From Diphasiastrum complanatum (lineage: Eukaryota; Streptophyta; Lycopodiopsida; Lycopodiales; Lycopodiaceae), in assembly GCA_029204225.1 (NCBI GenBank), contig CM055100.1:34278645-34342644 (forward strand): a stretch of DNA of 64,000 nucleotides, written 5' to 3'. The position numbers and the translations under genes are program-made. Positions 2,431 to 57,218 of this stretch are shown here, piece after piece (position 1 is the first letter of the stretch; every line of letters begins with the position of its first letter). Below the pieces are notes generated by a model. The model searched no databases, had not been told where the DNA came from, and was given only the letters and a program-made list of their open reading frames with translations.

Positions 2431-3371
2431 TTATGGAAGACTCTCCTTGCCATAAAAGGAGAGGTATTTGCATTGTAAACAACAATTTGTGATTAAGACA
2501 AAATTACTATTGTGATTATCTTGCATTTCATTGTGTAGGGCGGCTGCTGGGAAATGATTTCGCAGTTGAGGGCATTCATTAGCAACGTGATGCTGTGAGC
2601 AGATTGGACACCAGACATTTTCCCTTGCTGGAAAGGATTTCTTAGCAATATGTTTCATGGCGGTTTGGAAATTGGCAGTGAGTTTATCCATATGAGATTG
2701 TTGAGCTTTTTGCCAGGTTTCCATTTGATGTAGAAGTTTAGAAGATTGAGCAATATTGTCAGACTTTGGGTGATTAGGACGATCCGGATTCTTAGATTTC
2801 TTTTCACGATGGTCAAAGTCGTCGTCTGAAATTTCGTCTTCCTCATGGATAGCATCGTCATCACATCTTTAAGTTGGTCATAAAGGTCAACTGGTTTGAG
2901 TTCACGACGGATGTTTTTAGGCAATCCAGCTAAGAACAGTTTTATGGCCATACATTCGGTGATATTTTCATCAACACATTCTACTGTGAGACGTTTAAAA
3001 TGCTCAATGTAGTTTCGAACAGACTCTTCGCGACGCATCTTGATGTGGGTAATTTGAATGAACGGGCTCTGAGTCAGTTTGGATGGTTTGAAACGCTTGA
3101 TGAGAGCGTCCTTGAGGGTGGTCCAAGAAGCAAGATCAGGAGCTTCGAGATTCAAGTACCGTTCCTTGGCGGTTCCATAGAGTACCATAGAAAATAGGTG
3201 TAGCTTTTTAGTTTTAGAGGTATCTCCATAAAAACGACATGCATTATCAAAGTCTTGGAGAAATCGGACTGGGTCAGATTCTCCATCGTACTTTGGTGCA
3301 TTGATACATGGAATTCTTTGTTCTAGTCGTGGAGGAGCCAAATTACAAGATTTAGCACAGTCACAAGACAT
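2431..3371 (-). pseudogene. Ty3/gypsy-type gag, frameshifted
   Basis: This is the capsid/nucleocapsid gene of a Ty3/gypsy LTR retrotransposon. The start is taken at the ATG at 3371-3369 (MSCDCAKSC). A typical retrotransposon gag core follows, including FLQDFDNACRFYGD, the W-x-x-L-K-D-A-L-I-K-R-F helix region and the RNYIEHFKRLTVEC segment. About 170 codons in, near 2860, the frame shifts by one base. It continues in another frame through an acidic/basic linker into a zinc-knuckle-like CPICSQHHVANECP near 2575-2615. Gag packages element RNA in virus-like particles. No pol follows on the minus strand, so the copy is broken and non-functional. A plant Ty3-type primer-binding site lies upstream at 4127-4139. 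Confidence 0.75.
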
Positions 3372-4126
3372 GATGCAAAATACAGATGAGCAGGTCAGTA
3401 CTGTACTTGGCAAAAAGACAATTTGCTTGCAGAATTGATGGTGTAGGACAAAAAATTGGTCTTTCTGGTCGTGATAGAATTTGTGGTCAGGCTGAGAAAT
3501 CATGGAGAGGCAGAATAATCGAATTGTAATACTCCCGAATTCTGACAAGGAGTTTTGAATGTCAAAATAGTGATTTTTCTAGATTTTCTGGAAAAAAATT
3601 GTACTTTTAGAATTCACGGGTAGGACAGAGAAATTGTACTCTTTGAGAACGATTTCTTAGGCTGGATGGTGAATTCTAACAAAGAGGTTTGACTGACATA
3701 TAGGGAATTGATGAGATCTAGCCTCAATGAAGCCCGCAAATTCTAGGACAAAGATTTGGGTGAGATATAAGAGATTTTGACAGTATATCAGGCTGTTTTA
3801 TCAGAATCTAACCGTGGTCAGAATTCGTGGAGGTGATAAAATGAAAGATCAAGGTTTGTTAGGGCTATAGACAAGTTGGCGAATTCTGATATACCTGGTT
3901 GGTTTGAAAAAAGGTCACTTGGTCACTTCTTTTCAAGAAAATGCCCAAGTTGACTCTTTTGTTGCTTCCCCCCGGCTTGATAAGTTGCTCCGCAGCTCGT
4001 GTAGGACCTAGAGAGACGACTCGTGCTGTTTGTTGGTATATAGAGACAGGCAAACAAGCAAACATACAACACGGAAGCAAGAGAACAAAAAGGAGAAGAA
4101 GCTAGGTAAAAGTTACTTAAATAACA
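3372..4126 (-). other. Leader between primer-binding site and gag
   Basis: On the minus strand this 750-bp stretch lies between the primer-binding site and the gag start, the expected position of an untranslated leader in a long plant Ty3 element. No conserved protein is visible. Purine- and AT-rich phrases such as GAATTCTGAC recur loosely. Confidence 0.4.
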
Positions 4127-5814: not shown

Positions 5815-6750
5815 ATGATCGAGGATGTCATAATCCAATTATCCCAAGCTCAACGTGAGCCAACTGGTAATTCACCCTATGAAGGCATTGCACAAACCAT
5901 AACCCTTTCTCTAAGTAAGCCAAATGAAAAAAATGACTATCTTGTCCACGTTAGAGCTCATCTCAATCGCGAACAACGCAGACGGCTTGAAAAGCTCCTG
6001 CGAAAATATCGACATGTCTTTGCTTGGACCTATAAAGACATGAAAGCCGTCTCACCTCAAGTAGTTGTGCATCATATCCCGCTTAAACCGGGTGCGAGGC
6101 CCACTGCTAGTTGTCCATACATATGCAATCCCATCTATAAGGCCACTGTCAAAGAAGAATTACAACGTCTCTTAGATGCGGGATTTATCTATGAAATTGA
6201 ACATACTGAGTGGGTCTCCCCAATTGTCATCGTTCCCAAGAAAAATGAAAAACTCCGAATCTGTGTCGTTTTTAAAAAACTTAACGCCGTCACTAAATGT
6301 GATCATTTTCCATTACCTTTTGGAGAATCCATCTTAGAAAATCTAGTAGGAGATGAGGCTTACTCCTTCTAATATGGCTTTAGCGGATACAATGTGATCC
6401 AACTCGCTCAACAGAAAACCGTTTTTGCCACATAATGGGGAACCTTCTGCTGGAAAGTCATGCCCTTTGGTCTCTGCAATGCTCCTAGCACCTTCCAACG
6501 TGTTATGCAAGCGGCCTTTTCTCAACAGATGGGCGATACCTTAGAGGTTTACTTGGATGATTTAGGAGCACATTTCGAAGAAACACGCCATCTGTCTGTG
6601 CTCGAATTTTTTTTTTATCCAATGTCAACGCTTCGGCATCTCTCTTAGAAAAATGCCAGATTTGTATTACCCATGGTATTGTGTTAGGACATATTATCCC
6701 ACGAAATGGCATTGCCACTGACCTTGAAAAGACCCACAAAACGCTTTCAA
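5815..6750 (+). pseudogene. Ty3/gypsy reverse transcriptase (broken)
   Basis: This is the reverse transcriptase of the same plus-strand Ty3/gypsy pol. The first 185 codons are open and carry RKYRHVFAW, the block WVSPIVIVPKKNEKLRICV, and then KLNAVTKCDHFPLP. After a stop at about 6370 the frame resumes with FGLCNAPSTFQRVMQ and the catalytic YLDD near 6550. A remnant of the following block (GIVLGHIIPRNGI) can be read in a shifted frame at 6660-6720. RNase H and integrase are not recognisable. Stops, a frameshift at a T-run near 6610 and the missing 3' half make it a pseudogene. Confidence 0.8.
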
Positions 6751-50499: not shown

Positions 50500-50926
50500 T
50501 TCTATGGTTCATATGCGGTCTATAACGGATTGCCAAAAACCACTACAAAGGCAACAACTACGGTCTATGTGTGAAGGCAAGGAACCACCCAAGCACCGCA
50601 AGAATGTCAGTTGCGGTCTACGTGCGGAGGCAACAAACCTCCCAGACACCGCAAGGCTGCAGCTCATGAAGTTAATGACCGCCAGGGCACTTCCCAAGGC
50701 ACCGCAAAGTACCGTCAAGGCACCACAAGGAACCGCCTAAGGGACCGTCAGGAACCACAGGAGTCAACCCGACGGTCACTATGCGAAGACCACTTACCAA
50801 AGGAAACCGCAAGCTACCGCCAAAGCACTGCCCAAGGCACTACAAGACACTGCAAGAGTCAACCTTACGGTCACTATACGAAGACCACTGACCAAAGGAA
50901 ACCGCGAGCTATCACTTGCGATCTGT
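50500..50926 (+). repeat. GC-richer tandem-repeat array (interrupted by LTR element)
   Basis: Two nested patterns occur. A 53-bp unit around TGCGGTCTACGTGCGGAGGC repeats near 50558/50611. A 95-bp unit starting GAGTCAACCCGACGGTCACT at 50761 recurs at 50856 as GAGTCAACCTTACGGTCACT, continuing with GACCAAAGGAAACCGC. Related sequence (GGAAACTGCAAG, TTGCAGTCTACATACG) continues at 57080-57180, on the other side of the LTR element. Open frames here are repeat artefacts. Confidence 0.7.
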
Positions 50927-51487
50927 CATGTGCCAACCTTAGCATTCAAACATCTAATCCATTCATTAAACATCAAATTACAATGGAAATGCAAAAAATC
51001 AAGAAACTAGTCAAATATCAAGAAGATAGCTAAAAGTAGCAAAACTTCACCAAATTAGGCAAAGTAAAGTATCATTATTCATGATTATGGATCATTCAAA
51101 GGATAGGGCCTGATTCTAGAGCATGATCATAGCTCTCATGTGATTTTAGGCACACGAACCACTTTCTTCATCAAGAAAGCTCTCCAAGAGAAGCTCCAAG
51201 ATCTCTTAAAACTCAAAATTACAAAATGAACAATAGCCTCCAAATTTAGCACGACCTCAACTATTTATAGTGGTCAGTTGTGCCTCTACTATAAGTTTGG
51301 GGCCTTATTTGGCTAATTTGGGCCTTACAACCATTATTACAAGTCCACTATTCACAAATATAGCGAGGTTGTTTGAGCCACCTTATTAACTGTCCTAATG
51401 ACTAATTCTAGTCTACTTTAGCTCCATGGCCATATTTGGCAATTCATTAATAAGCTCATGGGCTAATTACATGCAGCACATGACACT
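50927..51487 (-). repeat. LTR (3' LTR of the minus-strand element)
   Basis: On the plus strand it starts TGTCATGTGCCAACC and ends GCAGCACATGACA, so its ends form a 10-bp inverted repeat. The purine tract at 51488-51502 marks it as the 3' LTR. Confidence 0.8.
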
Positions 51488-51671
51488 CCCCCTACTTTAA
51501 GCATTTTTGCCCTAAAAAATGAAGACCATGTAGCTCTTTGTTGAGTGTCATGCTTCACGAATCCTTTGGTGGTAGTCGAATCATATTTGGCCACCTTGAA
51601 TAAGAAACATCTTTTCTTGTATTATTCTTGTCAGTAGCCATCTACCGTTCATCAGATTTTGCTGCCTCTGC

Positions 51672-53730
51672 TTATTGTCGTAGAACAAGGTTGCAACGAG
51701 AATTCTTCATAAAGAACCTTTGATCTACAACTGATCCCATTGATTTGATAAGATCACTGAAGAAGAGATTGTTGAAACACAGGAAAGCCTCAAGTTGCAT
51801 TAGTTCTGCATGAGTTGACGGGATCCAAGCAACAGGACATTCAATGGTCTTCTTCCCTAGTATCTCTCTTGATTGGATAGGGTATCCAATTCCAGATGCG
51901 TCTGTTTTTGTCCCTGCATCTGGTGTTGTTATTGCCTTGTGTACCACTTCATAATGAATGATCTTGATTTCATTTTGAAGTTCCAATGCATCCAATAAAT
52001 GCAAGCATTCCACATTCGGATTCATCAAGTCCCATGTAGTGAAGGGATTCTTTTGGTTATCTGTACACAAGGAGTTTGATAGTCTTGAATTCGGTTCCCA
52101 ATCTATTTTCCTTGTTGATAGGATCAATGCCATCCTCTAACGTGTTATATCACTCAGTTGATTCATATTCAGAAATTAATCCAAATAGATCATTGTCAAT
52201 AATACGGTCATAACCACTGATTTGTGGAGTAGAATGTAATTCCCGACAATTGGATTGTACTCCATGATTTGTTAGCTGCAACTGTAGAAATTTGTTCTGC
52301 TCATAATATACCTCTTTATTTTGACCTTTGACCTGATCATTACAGCTATCGAACAAGATTTGATCTGGATTTTCAAATTGGTCTTCATTCACTTGTCCAT
52401 TGGTGCTTTGCTGATATTGATTTGCCTCCGTGGAAGGTAGATCGATATCAAGAATTTTGCTTTATTCCTTGAAATCATCAGCTTCATCAGAATATTCATG
52501 ATCTTGTTTGCTCAAAACATCTCAATCAATATCTGCCTTTGGCTTGGAATTTTGCCCTTGGACTAGAGGAAACGTTGTTTCATAGACATCAACAGTGGTA
52601 CACAATTCAGGATTAGTAGTTTGAATATCAATTGGTTGTTGTGGAATACCAACCGATTGCAAGATAGAGTCAAAACGAGCAACCATCTTGTTGTACATTT
52701 TTTGCCATCTTTGCTCTGACCTTTCTTGTAATTGTTGCCCTGTTTGTTTTGTTTGTTCGGTACTATCCTGTATGGCAGTTAAAAGTGTACCTAATATTTC
52801 CTTTGTTTCCACTGGTCACTTTACTAATAGTAGGGTCTACACTATTATTTGATCTTCCATGAATATTGACCCACTGTTGTTGAGTTGATGGCGTTAGACT
52901 TTTCACAAAATTGACATAGGGACTGGAAATTGTCGCTCCATTTGCCACAGTGACATAGGGACTGGAAATTGTCGCTCCACTTGCCACAATAATATTCCTT
53001 TCCTCCTAAGAATCATTTGCATTGGCAAATGATGTTCCCATCAAAGAAGGACTAGTCATACATGTAGTGGCATAGAGAGAACACCCTTCATTGGTGTCAA
53101 TTTCTTCACTTTCATAGGCATCTTCATAGATCTCATAATCAACATTATCATCCTCATTATGATCGAAATGTTGTTCTGCAACATGGTGACGTCGTCTTTT
53201 GAGTTCTTCAAGATCATAGAATTGTTCCATGGGCTCATACTGGTCTTTTGCTCCACAATGCACATGTTGTTGCTCATCCACGCTTATCGCTTCAAACTGA
53301 TTCTCAGTAGTAAATTGGAATTAATCTTGACCTTGATAATCACCATCATTGAAGTCCAGTTCATCTTGATCATCTAAGGGTTCAACTGCTTCATTTGTAG
53401 AGCCATCTTCAATGACTGCTTCGTGTTGTTCCTCGCTCTGCTGATCGTTGTTGAAATCTTTAGAGTAATGGTCAAGTTCAGAAGTGTCGTTGTAGTCCTG
53501 ATACTGATCATCATTAGCCAAATCATCGTTCTGGTCTTGATACTGATTGTTATCAGTGATGTCGTCACCTTGGTCATAATCTTCGATGTAATCATCACTT
53601 GATCGCAATATTCCTCCACATCATTGTCACAATCGTCATCACAGTATGACTGATCGTCCTCCTCTTGTTCATAATGCCAATCCATTAGAGTCAATGTGGA
53701 ATAACTAGATCTTGTAACTATGGATTGCAA
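51672..53730 (-). pseudogene. Decayed acidic ORF of the LTR element
   Basis: From 53730 leftwards one minus-strand frame runs with only two stops (about 53321 and 53006) to about 52763. It continues in a second frame from 52812 to 52150, and 52133-51672 is open in a third. Together they look like one broken ORF of perhaps 600 codons or more. The N-part is extremely Asp/Glu/Tyr/Gln-rich (DYDQGDDITDNNQYQDQNDD). The middle contains a 12-residue duplication (GATISSPYV twice, from a 36-bp repeat at 52913-52987) and a likely coiled coil (TKQTGQQLQERSEQRWQKM). I recognise no domain; by position it could be a gag-like protein. Confidence 0.5.
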
Positions 53731-54312
53731 TCTTGGGAAGAATTTGGAAATGGTATGAAAACCAGTTTTAACAAGGTGCAGTCAAGCGGTGACAATAGAC
53801 ATGAGTTTTTTTATTAGAGCAAGTAAAAAGGACTTTTGAGAAGGTCAAATTTTGATCCAAATAAGACTTCTACACTGAAAATCTTGTTGAGCTAATGAAG
53901 TTTGCTTTGTACAGCACTGAAATCCGAGGTCACAAGGAGAAGTTATGAGAATTCACAGAATTCAAAAAAATTCAATGTATATAAGAACTTACAAAAGGGG
54001 TAACGACAAATAGAAAAATAAATAAAATCGGAGGAATGATTACAAAAGTAAAGTTATTGTAATGGGCTCAGAGAACTGAGCACTTTTTGCTCGTGCAGTA
54101 CTAAAATCTGAGATCATATTAAAAAAGTTATGGAAGCTTGAAAACTTGGTGGAGAACAAGAAATGAACGAACTTAAAAATAGGGGCCTTAAGAGAAAAGT
54201 TTGGTTTCTTTGAAGCATTGGACCGTTGAATAAATGGAAACTGTAAGCAACCTTTGAATTTGATGGTATTTTAAGAGAGAACGATCTCAACCGGAGGTAA
54301 GAGAAGGGCCGG

Positions 54313-54314
<2 letters not shown>

Positions 54315-54359
<45 letters not shown>
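54315..54359 (+). repeat. AG microsatellite
   Basis: About 22 uninterrupted AG units lie inside the non-autonomous LTR element, followed by two copies of TCTCGACCGAAGGTAA. Microsatellites of this length are typically polymorphic. Confidence 0.9.
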
Positions 54360-54362
<3 letters not shown>

Positions 54363-54544
54363 TCTCGAGAGAGAAAATCTCGACCGAAGGTAACGATGGA
54401 TCTTTGTATCTCGACCGAAGGTAAGGATGGATCTTTGTCTCAGCAGGTAGCATCAAAACCTTGAAGAATTGCTCATGATACATCGCGAAGAGGTAGTCAT
54501 GGCATATTGTTTTCAATGGGCAGCGATGGCAAAAGCATTGGTCA

Positions 54545-54916
54545 ATGGAAAAGAAATGCGTGGGACTTTTAGCTCTAGGTAGCAAGACGGCAATCCAAAC
54601 TGATGATGTTCCTTGTCTGAAGAAAGAAGATAACTGTGAGCACGTAATCGAAGCTTTTCAGCAGAAGTGGAAATGGCAGAGTGAGAACAAGTCTTTGGCA
54701 TTTGCTTTGCTCGGATCGCTTTGGCTCATGTTTGTTGTTACTGGATGCCTTGCTGTAGTGAAGCTCTGTGTAATATACGTAGGGTCGTTGATGATTCAGC
54801 AATTCATCGACTTCACGGCTAAAAAGGATGGCCCTTGGACAGAGGGAACTGAGCTTGTACTGCTATTGTTTGTTTCAAAATGTACTGAAGTTCTTACAGA
54901 TCATCAAAGAAAATGA
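54545..54916 (+). pseudogene. Captured ABCC (MRP-type) transporter fragment
   Basis: The open frame of 123 codons reads like the start of the first ABC transmembrane domain of plant ABCC exporters. IQTDDVPCLKKEDNCEHVIE resembles the plant DDIPDL linker, then comes KSLAFALLGSLWLMFVVTG, AVVKLCVIYVGSLMIQQFID, and LVLLLFVSKCTEVLTDHQ. The family pattern ends with EVL-x-x-HQ at the same point. In full ABCC proteins this segment precedes about a thousand more residues; here the frame stops just after HQRK and no nucleotide-binding domain follows. It lies inside the LTR element and antisense to it. It is a gene fragment, not a working transporter. Confidence 0.75.
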
Positions 54917-55149
54917 TGGAGAGAGCATCTGACACACTTGAATAGGACCTACGCCTGCTGTTAACCTCCACCGCTTGCACAACAAGCAAATGTACCAGAG
55001 CTGCAAATGTACTGATTTAATTAGACATCTGCGCCCTCTGCTGAAATGCACTTAAATAGAATATTGCACTAACTCTTTACTAACTACGCACTAGCTACGC
55101 CCAGCTTGCTGACCAAGGGGCAAATCCTTTCTGACAGAGAAAAAGGTTT

Positions 55150-55500
55150 CTGAATCGACATCACATAGCCAAACAGTGTATGTATGGGATCTTGATGAGA
55201 CTTTGATCATCTTCCAGACGCTGTCCACATGCGAGTTTGCAGAAGCTTATAAAGGATCCAAAGATAATAAACAAGGAGTTAAATTGGGAAGAAATGGGAA
55301 AGCTTAATTTTCAAGATCTGCGATGAGTATTGCTTTCATGAGCCAAACATTGCTGCATTGAGCCAGCATTGTGATGATGGAGCAAATCTCACTGATTACA
55401 ACTTCAACGCAGATGAAATTAGACTTCTTTTTTAACAGATTCTGAATGCCGTAAACTCGCTTATCGCCATCGCTGGGTAAAGAACATCTATTCTCTAGAC
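55150..55500 (+). pseudogene. Captured plant EYA phosphatase fragment
   Basis: QTVYVWDLDETLIIF at about 55175 matches the HAD active-site strand of Eyes-absent proteins (D-x-D-E-T). FAEAYKGSKDNKQGVKLGR follows. After a one-base frame shift near 55290 the text continues WESLIFKICDEYCFHEPNI, then LSQHCDDGANLTDYNFNADE. After a second shift it reads CRKLAYRHRW near 55450. The order and spacing are those of plant EYA, a Tyr phosphatase of the HAD superfamily. The C-terminal half of the domain is missing. It lies 240 bp downstream of the ABCC fragment, on the same strand and inside the same LTR element. Frame shifts make it non-functional. Confidence 0.75.
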
Positions 55501-55718
55501 TGTTTCTGTCCATTCCCTCATGGCTGCTGGCAAGAAGGTTAATGGTAGACAGAGAAAGGAGTGCACCGGGTGCGTGGAGAACAGGTTTGTGTTTCAGTAC
55601 GCGTGGACCACTTTTTTTTTTTTTTTGATTTTATGCCATTTTTTTGGCAAATTTTTTTTACATTTGTGGTGGAATGTGGATGTGGATAACCAATGACGGG
55701 CTGCCACATAGCACATGC

Positions 55719-55855
55719 ACATTCCATCGGAGAGAGGAGAGAGAACGTGCATTCTACCGGAGAGAGGAGAAAGCAAGTGAATTCCACCTGAGAGAACGTG
55801 CATTCCACCGGAGAGAGGAGAGAGAAAGTGAATTCCACCTGAGAGAGGAAAGAGA
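55719..55855 (+). repeat. Tandem repeat of about 33 bp
   Basis: A unit resembling ATTCCACCGGAGAGAGGAGA followed by GAACGTGC or AAGTGA recurs about four times. The frames here, on either strand, are repeat artefacts. Confidence 0.75.
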
Positions 55856-55859
55856 ATGA

Positions 55860-56497
55860 TAGATTAGTAAGAGAAAGAAAATTGGATGGACATTATGCTC
55901 ATGGAGGTGGTCCCAAAATACAAAGGACACCTAAGCTTTTAAATGGTAGTTAGGGTTGTGTCAAAATTTTTAAAATGAGTTGGCAAAAACTTTAAAATGA
56001 AGAAATGGAAATTTTTTTACAAGGAAACAAAACTTCAAGAATGAAGTGCTTCTCTCCCAAAATACTACCAAAAATTTAGTTTAATACCTCCTTCACAAGA
56101 ATTGCCATATCTCCCTCAATTTTCAACCAAATTGGCTGCAAATTGGCTCAGAATCAAGCTAAGAGTGATATCTACAATGCTACAAAATTACAGTAAAAAA
56201 TTTTGGACAAAAATTCAGCCAAAAATGGAGAAAACAGACTGCAAAAAACTACAACTAGCTAAAATTGGAAAGAAAACACTAAAATGGCCATAACTTGGTC
56301 ATTATAGCTCCAAACCATAAAATCTCAGTACCTCCAGAAAGCTAAAAGAGAGATCCACAACAAGAAACTATACAAAAATGAAAATTAGATAGTCAAAAAC
56401 TGAATGAAAGCTTGTTGGAAATTGAAAAATCAAAAAAACTAAAACAAGAAACTCTACCAAATTTAGCAAAATCCACCAAATCTAATGGGAAAGGATC
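55860..56497. other. AT-rich 5' part of the LTR element interior
   Basis: Read on the minus strand this is the leader between the primer-binding site and the captured genes. It is A-rich on the plus strand, with no gene recognised. Confidence 0.4.
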
Positions 56498-56516
56498 TAA
56501 TGCTCTTATACCAAAA
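56498..56516 (-). other. Primer-binding-site-like sequence
   Basis: On the minus strand it reads TTGGTATAAGAGC, one base different from the copia-type TTGGTATCAGAGC. It is separated from the LTR core by a few bases. The last 11 bases of this LTR copy (GGCACATGACA in the other copy) are not present before it, so the LTR/PBS junction is rearranged or decayed. Confidence 0.6.
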
Positions 56517-56520
56517 TTAA

Positions 56521-57067
56521 CCTAGCATTCAAACATCTAATCCATTAATTAAACATCAAATTAAAATGGAAATGCAAGAAATCAAGAAACTAGTCAAAAA
56601 TCAAGAAGATAGCTAAAAGTAGCAAAACTTCACCAAATTAGACAAAGTAAAGTATCATTATTCATGATTATGGATTATTCAAAGGATAGGGCCTGATTCT
56701 AGAGCATTATCATAGCTCTCATGTGATTTTAGGCACATGAACCACTTTCTTCATCAAGAAAGCTCTCCAAGAGAAGTTCCAAAATCTCTTAAAACTCAAA
56801 ATTACAAAATGAACAATAGACTCCAAATTTAGCATGAACTCAGCTATTTATAGTGGTCATTTGTGTCTCTACTATAAGTTTGGGACCTTACTTGGCTAAT
56901 TTGGGCCTTACAACCATTATTACAAGTTCGCTATTCACAAATATAGCGAGGTTGTTCGAGCCACCTTATTAACTGTCCTAATGACTAATTCTAGTCTACT
57001 TTAGCTCCATGGCCATATTTGGCAATTCATTAGTAAGCTCATGGGCTAATTACATGCAGCACATGAC
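56521..57067 (-). repeat. LTR (5' LTR of the minus-strand element)
   Basis: Pairs with 50927-51487, most differences being transitions. It ends GCAGCACATGACA on the plus strand and is followed by TGATC. Relative to the partner it lacks the 10-11-bp terminus next to the primer-binding site. Confidence 0.8.
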
Positions 57068-57218
57068 ATGATCCATGCGCGAACCAGTCTCACCTGCAGC
57101 TCCGCCAATACACCGCCGACGAGGCATTGAAGGAAACTGCAAGACGACAATTGCAGTCTACATACGATTGCGATAAGCACCGTTTTCTCACGCTCCCAAA
57201 GCGGAGTTCAAATCTAAG

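What the first reader, a model, noticed from the sequence alone, without database searches (positions are those of the whole stretch)
50927..57067. Non-autonomous LTR retrotransposon that carries pieces of two unrelated host genes
The element has LTRs of about 96% identity, a purine tract, a PBS-like site and a plausible 5-bp target duplication, but no RT, integrase or protease. Its interior holds an ABCC transporter segment and an EYA phosphatase segment within about 1 kb of each other, on the same strand. Gene capture is well documented for Pack-MULEs and Helitrons and reported for some LTR elements. A double capture of these two genes in one non-autonomous LTR element is, as far as I know, not described. 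This is the best candidate for something new in the window.
Basis: partly seen in the sequence, partly recalled or inferred. Interest (0 to 1): 0.85.

Follow-up and report, generated by a model that had tools for sequence, protein, structure and literature searches.

The report
Retrotransposon family carrying spliced host-gene pieces
This is a plant retrotransposon that carries pieces of at least four host genes, copied from spliced messenger RNA, and several related copies carry pieces of other host genes in the same part of the element; this is known behaviour (maize Bs1) taken further than usual.

Summary
An LTR element lies at 50924-57068, on the MINUS strand, with 24 differences in 550 LTR sites, PBS, PPT and a 5-bp duplication with one mismatch. 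It carries four host genes, not two: ABCC, a CotA-like multicopper oxidase (MCO), EYA and a peroxiredoxin. The MCO piece lacks exactly one 226-bp intron; EYA in four sister loci lacks exactly a 304-bp intron. The source was spliced mRNA.

Family copies share a leader and an unknown ORF and differ in between. In 15 of 29 such intervals I identified host-gene pieces, also of SAM synthetase, SKP1, prohibitin and an LTI65-like gene; nine of the 15 were picked for matching the finding. Eight introns of five genes are missing precisely. Cargo has moved between LTR subfamilies. By my count 11 of 13 captured pieces are antisense to the element RNA (p=0.022, post hoc), which plain minus-strand template switching does not predict.

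Verdict: real; new variant of a known kind.

The parts
50919..50923 (.). target-site duplication, left copy CGATC
   Evidence: one mismatch to the right copy
50924..51485 (-). 3' LTR (562 bp)
   Evidence: ends shared with other family copies
51486..51500 (-). polypurine tract TTAAAGTAGGGGGAG next to the 3' LTR
   Evidence: same in L014, L021, L024
51672..53730 (-). decayed internal ORF of the family (acidic, unknown; no gag, RT or integrase match)
54273..55966 (.). cargo interval, variable between family copies
54315..54358 (.). 44-bp (AG)n tract
54565..54912 (+). ABCC transporter piece, inside one exon of host gene C7:73.334 Mb (94.8%)
54914..55134 (-). multicopper oxidase (CotA/spore coat A-like) 5' UTR and N-terminus; 226-bp intron exactly absent at 55040/55041
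55137..55495 (+). EYA phosphatase piece, broken by frameshifts; 330-bp intron plus 21 nt of exon absent at ATGAGC about 55338-55343
55493..55540 (+). peroxiredoxin remnant (48 bp, 81% to the host gene; 115 bp in L009)
55967..56518 (-). conserved family leader between PBS and cargo
56502..56513 (-). primer-binding site TGGTATAAGAGC (TGGTATCAGAGC in L014, L015, L017, L021, L023)
   Evidence: iMet assignment recalled
56519..57068 (-). 5' LTR
57069..57073 (.). target-site duplication, right copy TGATC

Best explanation
A non-autonomous LTR retrotransposon family whose copies pick up pieces of spliced host mRNAs between the 5' leader and the internal ORF. Shown: intron-free pieces of several host genes in this interval, shared changes that mark single captures later copied, and the same cargo in backbones of different LTR subfamilies. 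Inferred: the pieces enter during reverse transcription inside the particle of an autonomous partner, by template switches at short matches, and then spread by transposition and by recombination between co-packaged element RNAs. The mostly antisense orientation suggests that the switch often happens during plus-strand synthesis onto an mRNA, or during minus-strand synthesis onto a host cDNA.
For: Eight introns of five host genes are absent at the junction in captured pieces: EYA 304 bp (L009, L010, L014, L015), MCO 226 bp (window) and 145 bp of a paralogue (L057-L059), LTI65-like 344 bp (L042), 109 and 98 bp (L043), all; SKP1 7,547 bp (L066) and the C19:10.86 Mb gene 831 bp (L067). A ninth, EYA 330 bp, is gone with 21 nt of exon between two ATGAGC copies (window, L009, L010). 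Host pieces were identified in 15 of 29 cargo intervals. Window and L009 share EYA at 95.8% while LTR and leader are only 80-81% alike. Shared changes against the parent in ABCC (window and L010, alignment) and the same 21-nt loss in EYA point to single captures. The EYA-peroxiredoxin join has a 4-nt overlap ATGG in the two parents.
Against: No autonomous partner was searched for, and no RT was found in the copies read. No expression data. The antisense excess is small in number and was noticed after the fact. The fixed site is partly by construction: I looked for host pieces mainly in the interval between ORF and leader. The L067 gene has an intronless paralogue at C7:3.676 Mb that is 95% and 90% like the captured piece, so that piece need not come from mRNA directly. 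In 14 of 29 intervals no host gene was identified, nine of them without any protein search. ABCC lies inside a single exon and says nothing on splicing. Four of the junction alignments carry small gaps (L015, L057, L058, L059).
Confidence: 0.85

Rival explanations
1. Processed pseudogenes made by a LINE-type machinery were inserted into the element one after another, and the element then carried them along.
For: Intron-free pieces fit any reverse-transcription route; multi-part chimeras attributed to LINE template jumps are reported in a fungus (PMC2104539, title and abstract start in a listing).
Against: The pieces end inside exons, EYA and peroxiredoxin join directly with a 4-nt overlap, and the joins I read show no long poly-A. 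Target duplications around single pieces were not searched for systematically.
Confidence: 0.08
2. DNA-level capture, as by Pack-TYPE elements, Helitrons or repair of breaks with genomic DNA.
For: The EYA 330-bp intron loss could be a DNA deletion between two ATGAGC repeats.
Against: Eight other introns are removed at GT-AG borders. One is 7.5 kb long.
Confidence: 0.03
3. A one-off chimera in one element lineage, not a habit of the family.
For: The copies with EYA, ABCC or peroxiredoxin seem to descend from shared captures.
Against: Other copies carry other genes: SAM synthetase (L038, Pfam 3e-18), SKP1 (L066, 2e-20), prohibitin (L037, 1.7e-6), LTI65-like and a C5 gene (L042), MCO C-terminus (L043).
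Confidence: 0.04

Closest known systems
Maize Bs1 (transducing LTR retroelement)
   Same: LTR element with pieces of several unrelated host genes (three in Bs1; review PMC13317346, passages), exons only (PMC4717578, section 13).
   Different: Here four genes, one in opposite orientation to the others; most pieces antisense to the element; other family copies with different cargo. The orientation of the Bs1 pieces was not seen in a paper here (PMC2899935 not held).
Soybean TRIM GmaRetroS15
   Same: LTR ends, 5-bp duplication, pieces of three host genes, introns absent (PMC4717578, section 13).
   Different: The gene-carrying TRIMs there are 1,172-1,449 bp; this element is 6,145 bp with a 562-bp LTR and an internal ORF.
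Maize LTR elements with gene fragments
   Same: 425 elements in 81 families, at least 189 independent captures (PMC2774510, passages); that is more than two captures per family on average, so repeated capture within a family is implied there.
   Different: That survey reports no LTR element with pieces of more than one standard nuclear gene, under its conditions. Whether captures there share a site or a strand was not in the passages I saw.
Retand elements with antisense ORFs
   Same: Antisense coding sequence inside an LTR element (PMC11963269, passages).
   Different: Retand antisense ORFs are conserved and lie between pol and the 3' LTR; in the passages seen they are not described as fresh host-gene pieces.

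Membership tests
Non-autonomous LTR retrotransposon | paired LTRs with inverted TG..CA ends, PBS, PPT | tested here: met
   PBS with one mismatch to sister copies
Non-autonomous LTR retrotransposon | 4-6 bp target-site duplication | tested here: met
   5 bp with one mismatch; exact in L014
Non-autonomous LTR retrotransposon | no own reverse transcriptase or integrase | tested here: met
   ORFs and Pfam
Non-autonomous LTR retrotransposon | mobilised by an autonomous partner | not tested
   no partner searched for
Bs1-like transducing LTR element | pieces of more than one host gene between the LTRs | tested here: met
   four genes
Bs1-like transducing LTR element | introns absent | tested here: met
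   (226 bp in the window; 304 bp in sister loci)
Bs1-like transducing LTR element | transcribed and translated chimeric ORF | not testable with these tools
   no expression data; the window pieces are broken by stops and shifts
Pack-TYPE or Helitron capture | introns kept in captured genomic DNA | tested here: not met
TR-GAG | single ORF encoding gag | tested here: inconclusive
   internal ORF without Pfam gag match; a diverged gag cannot be excluded
TRIM | miniature element (definition recalled; gene-carrying TRIMs 1.2-1.4 kb) | tested here: not met
   6,145 bp with 562-bp LTR

The most novel reading that the evidence does not exclude
The family is a habitual collector of mRNA pieces at one leader-side site, and takes them in antisense by a second-strand route: plus-strand synthesis switching onto host mRNA, or minus-strand synthesis switching onto host cDNA, helped by GA/CT-rich tracts that are dense in the cargo interval. 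The element RNA would then carry long stretches complementary to host mRNAs (exact runs of 56 nt to ABCC and 54 nt to EYA) and could feed small RNAs against them.
Probability: 0.25. Interest if true: 0.72.

Novelty: new variant of a known kind. Interest (0 to 1): 0.5.

Why it matters
Captures of genes by LTR elements are often known as single events whose order and route are lost. Here one family in one genome offers several captures in one interval, with parents, exact splice junctions, shared later changes and cargo swapped between subfamilies. That makes the route of capture, including its strand, open to direct counting. If the antisense excess holds on a full census, template switching between co-packaged RNAs during minus-strand synthesis does not explain most captures here.

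Tried and rejected
Pfam on the ABCC segment and on two pasted EYA fragments gave no matching family (one unrelated hit at 0.017). Protein fragments of L021 and L017 cargo, about half of the residues printed, gave no solved-structure hit at 0.1. The later Pfam scans used fragments chosen by eye: eight of the 130 printed and two; seven cargo fragments of L066, L067 and L072 out of the list. Among cargo fragments they identified SAM synthetase and SKP1 firmly and MCO at 0.0034, below its cut-off. So the 14 intervals without an identified gene (L017, L029-L033, L035, L036, L039, L040, L044, L063, L068, L072) are mostly untested: five had one or a few fragments searched (L017, L031, L039, L044, L072), nine had none. 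A CPN60-like reading of the L067 and L037 tails rests on two hits at 0.022 and 0.064, below gp41 hits that I take as chance, and is not claimed; the L067 gene is named only by its locus. The LTI65 name rests on a Pfam score below its cut-off (4.4e-4). The label 'type II' for the peroxiredoxin is recalled.

I considered L023 as evidence that peroxiredoxin was captured before EYA. L023 is a 97-99.6% copy of the L009 region with the EYA stretch deleted, so it says nothing on order. L015 is 98.2% identical to L014 and is not counted as a separate capture, though it is listed among the loci with the EYA junction. In one search the peroxiredoxin query was cut at the wrong place and matched nothing; searches are used instead.

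Family copies fetched but not counted among the 29, because I could not delimit their cargo interval or did not analyse it: L018, L024, L028, L034, L041, L060, L061, L062, L064, L065, L069, L070, L071; L015 and L023 as near-identical copies; L026, L027, L048, L050-L053, L055, L056 served only as match partners. L033 and L057 are counted although only their ORF-side anchor was found. L069 lies in an element that matches the L043 cargo at 87% over its whole length.

Codon positions 1/2/3 of the ABCC differences are 5/3/10. This looks like coding constraint, but it also counts changes on the parent's side, so no claim is made.
Full report
WHAT IS THERE. The window lies in a 1.74-Gb genome of 5,176 contigs, at C9:34278645-34342644. 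I take it for a plant from the gene content; a homosporous lycophyte is my guess from genome size and the number of large contigs, and was not tested. The element spans 50924-57068. Two LTRs (D1) differ at 24 of 550 aligned sites, K2P 0.045. At an assumed rate of 1.3e-8 per site and year (recalled, grass value) this is about 1.7 million years. PPT and PBS are on the minus strand, next to the left and right LTR, so the element reads from right to left. The PPT equals that of L014, L021 and L024; the PBS differs by one base from TGGTATCAGAGC in L014, L015, L017, L021 and L023; L014 shows an exact 5-bp duplication.

FOUR HOST GENES. Searching 54545-55500 against the genome, following L009 further and fetching the hits gave four parents. 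(1) ABCC: C7:73.334 Mb, 94.8% over 348 bp inside one exon; the parent has ABC_membrane at 1.8e-15. (2) MCO: C19:43.739 Mb, 91.5% and 93.8% on either side of an intron; the parent matches spore coat protein A at 1.1e-13. This piece is on the minus strand. (3) EYA: C7:7.223 Mb, 94.1% and 90.5%; the parent matches human EYA2 at 1.1e-16. (4) Peroxiredoxin: C4095:16.99 kb, 85% over 115 bp to L009; a 30-residue stretch of the piece matches peroxiredoxin 1tp9 at 9.9e-6. In the window only 48 bp match it (81%), since a deletion at 55495 removed the EYA 3' end and the peroxiredoxin start, which L009, L010, L014 and L015 still have.

SPLICED mRNA WAS THE SOURCE. For each intron I joined the parent's exons over 35 + 35 nt and aligned them to the element. 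The window's MCO piece crosses the site of a 226-bp GT-AG intron without gap (57 of 62 identical; the match ends 8 nt short of the query end). EYA in L009, L010, L014 and L015 crosses a 304-bp intron site (67 of 70, 60 of 68, 64 of 68 without gaps; 64 of 67 with 3 gap positions in L015). In the window, L009 and L010 the other EYA intron (330 bp) is gone together with 21 nt of exon, between two copies of ATGAGC. That loss could be slippage on cDNA or a DNA deletion, and I do not count it.

OTHER COPIES. The LTR and the internal ORF region have many relatives (first-look candidates 2,656 and 1,168, rough, 40 scored in each). Copies share a leader after the PBS (about 55967-56518) and the ORF, and differ in between. 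I analysed 29 such intervals: the window and 28 loci (20, 9). Thirteen more fetched copies were dropped because their interval was not delimited or analysed, and L015 and L023 as duplicates. Host-gene pieces were identified in 15 of 29: window, L009, L010, L013, L014, L021, L037, L038, L042, L043, L057, L058, L059, L066, L067. Nine of these 15 (window, L009, L010, L013, L014, L021, L057-L059) are the finding itself or were fetched because they matched its cargo. L038 was fetched because it shares a module with L021. Among the 19 fetched for their backbone or a neighbouring hit, without a known host piece (L017, L029-L033, L035-L037, L039, L040, L042-L044, L063, L066-L068, L072), 5 have one: L037, L042, L043, L066, L067. 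These are lower bounds: protein fragments were chosen by eye, nine of the 14 negative intervals had no protein search at all, and the genome search scores only the best 40 candidates. The site is partly by construction, because I looked for host pieces mainly in this interval; the ORF and leader were checked only by alignment between copies and by Pfam on eight ORFs.

The further genes are: SAM synthetase N-terminus in L038 (Pfam 3e-18; solved structures 3e-17; I identified no parent gene among the hits); prohibitin in L037 (1.7e-6; 88% over 134 bp to a Band_7 gene at C7:66.53 Mb); SKP1 in L066 (Pfam 2e-20; 96% and 99% to two exons at C12:45.46 Mb); an LTI65/LTI78-like gene at C8:31.84 Mb in L042 and, in another part, in L043; a C5:52.62 Mb ORF without Pfam match in L042 (87% over 171 bp); the MCO C-terminus in L043 (94.7% over 150 bp; solved structures 9.1e-5); the MCO 5' end in L057-L059; a gene at C19:10.86 Mb in L067. 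Introns absent at the junction: LTI65-like 344 bp (L042; also the loci L055 and L056), 109 and 98 bp (L043), MCO paralogue 145 bp (L057-L059, with 2 gap positions each); SKP1 7,547 bp (69 of 69 aligned bases identical, one base of the query unaligned) and the C19 gene 831 bp (67 of 70). With the window's MCO and the sisters' EYA this makes eight introns of five genes (EYA, MCO, LTI65-like, SKP1, C19 gene; two MCO paralogues counted as one gene). The C19 gene also has a paralogue at C7:3.676 Mb that lacks this intron and is 95% and 90% like the L067 piece, so this eighth case is weaker.

CARGO TRAVELS BETWEEN BACKBONES. The window and L009 are 80% alike in the LTR and 81% in the leader, but 95.8% in EYA, and share the 21-nt loss. 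Modules are shared in other combinations too, for example L021 with L038 (245 bp, 93%), L021 with L044 (305 bp, 82%), L038 with L044 (312 bp, 83%). Window and L010 share several ABCC changes against the parent (alignment), as expected from one capture.

STRAND. Counting each captured piece once per presumed capture, antisense to the element RNA are ABCC, EYA, peroxiredoxin, SAM synthetase, prohibitin, LTI65-like (L042), LTI65-like (L043), the C5 ORF, MCO in L043, SKP1 and the L067 gene; sense are the window's MCO and the MCO of L057-L059. That is 11 of 13, two-sided binomial p 0.022; 10 of 12, p 0.039, if the two LTI65-like pieces are one event (p values; strands read). The count was made after seeing the data, and independence of the events was not tested further. 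A minus-strand jump from element RNA to a co-packaged mRNA would give sense pieces; this is general knowledge of reverse transcription. Antisense pieces need a plus-strand jump to mRNA, a minus-strand jump to host cDNA, antisense transcripts, or selection against sense pieces in the leader.

GA TRACTS. Runs of (GA)7 or more occur 22 times in 30,592 bp of the 29 cargo intervals, 22 of 22 as GA on the strand antisense to the element, in 18 of 29 intervals; outside the element the window has one in about 58 kb. Four of nine parent loci have such a tract, on one strand or the other; two of the four are MCO paralogues. This may only be an inherited repeat of the family.

LITERATURE. Seen: PMC13317346 (passages: Bs1, three genes; [quoted passage not shown] the latter on LTR elements of rotifers that capture additional ORFs). 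PMC2899935 on Bs1 was not held. The maize figures, 189 captures in 81 families, imply repeated capture within families, so that part is not new. Searches on capture in LTR elements, template switching, non-autonomous capture, multi-gene capture, lycophytes and antisense capture listed no title that names a family with repeated capture at one site or a strand excess; apart from the papers named I saw only the listed rows (at most 12 per search), and the library lacks most subscription journals.

VERDICT. The finding is real and richer than reported, but multi-gene capture by an LTR element is known. Less documented, as far as these searches show, are captures of many different mRNAs in one interval of one family, cargo exchange between subfamilies, and a suggestive antisense excess. 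I file it as a new variant of a known kind.

Noticed in passing
29 cargo intervals; window 54315-54358: (GA)7+ tracts are about 40-fold denser in the cargo intervals than in the window outside the element (22 in 30.6 kb against 1 in about 58 kb), always GA on the strand antisense to the element (22 of 22). Possible switch sites or an inherited repeat.
   Followed up: partly
window 53687-54124; L028 1860-2297: This 438-bp stretch is 98.9% identical to a copy at C8:59.075 Mb (and 98% over 395 bp at C18:39.8 kb), while the other long matches scored there are 74-92% alike. Unexplained.
   Followed up: no
L027 998-1102 and L010 4570-4947 (C11:51.411 and 51.439 Mb): The start (54511-54615) and the rest (from 54611) of the ABCC cargo lie about 28 kb apart on opposite strands and overlap by 5 bp, as if a copy was split by insertion and inversion.
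   Followed up: no
window about 52142: Several family copies (for example L014, L017, L018) have about 190 bp more at this point of the internal ORF region; the window copy seems deleted.
   Followed up: no
window 2655-3548 (-) and 5815-6372 (+): ORFs that look by eye like Ty3-type gag and reverse transcriptase of another element; name recalled, not tested.
   Followed up: no
window 50251 and 57883 (+): Two further TGGTATCAGAGC primer-site-like words flank the element, so it may sit among other LTR elements.
   Followed up: no
MCO genes at C19:43.74 and C19:46.69-46.79 Mb: Pieces of this multicopper oxidase family occur in at least three separate cargo lineages (window; L057-L059; L043), with two different donor sites in the 5' UTR intron. 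It may be a preferred donor.
   Followed up: partly
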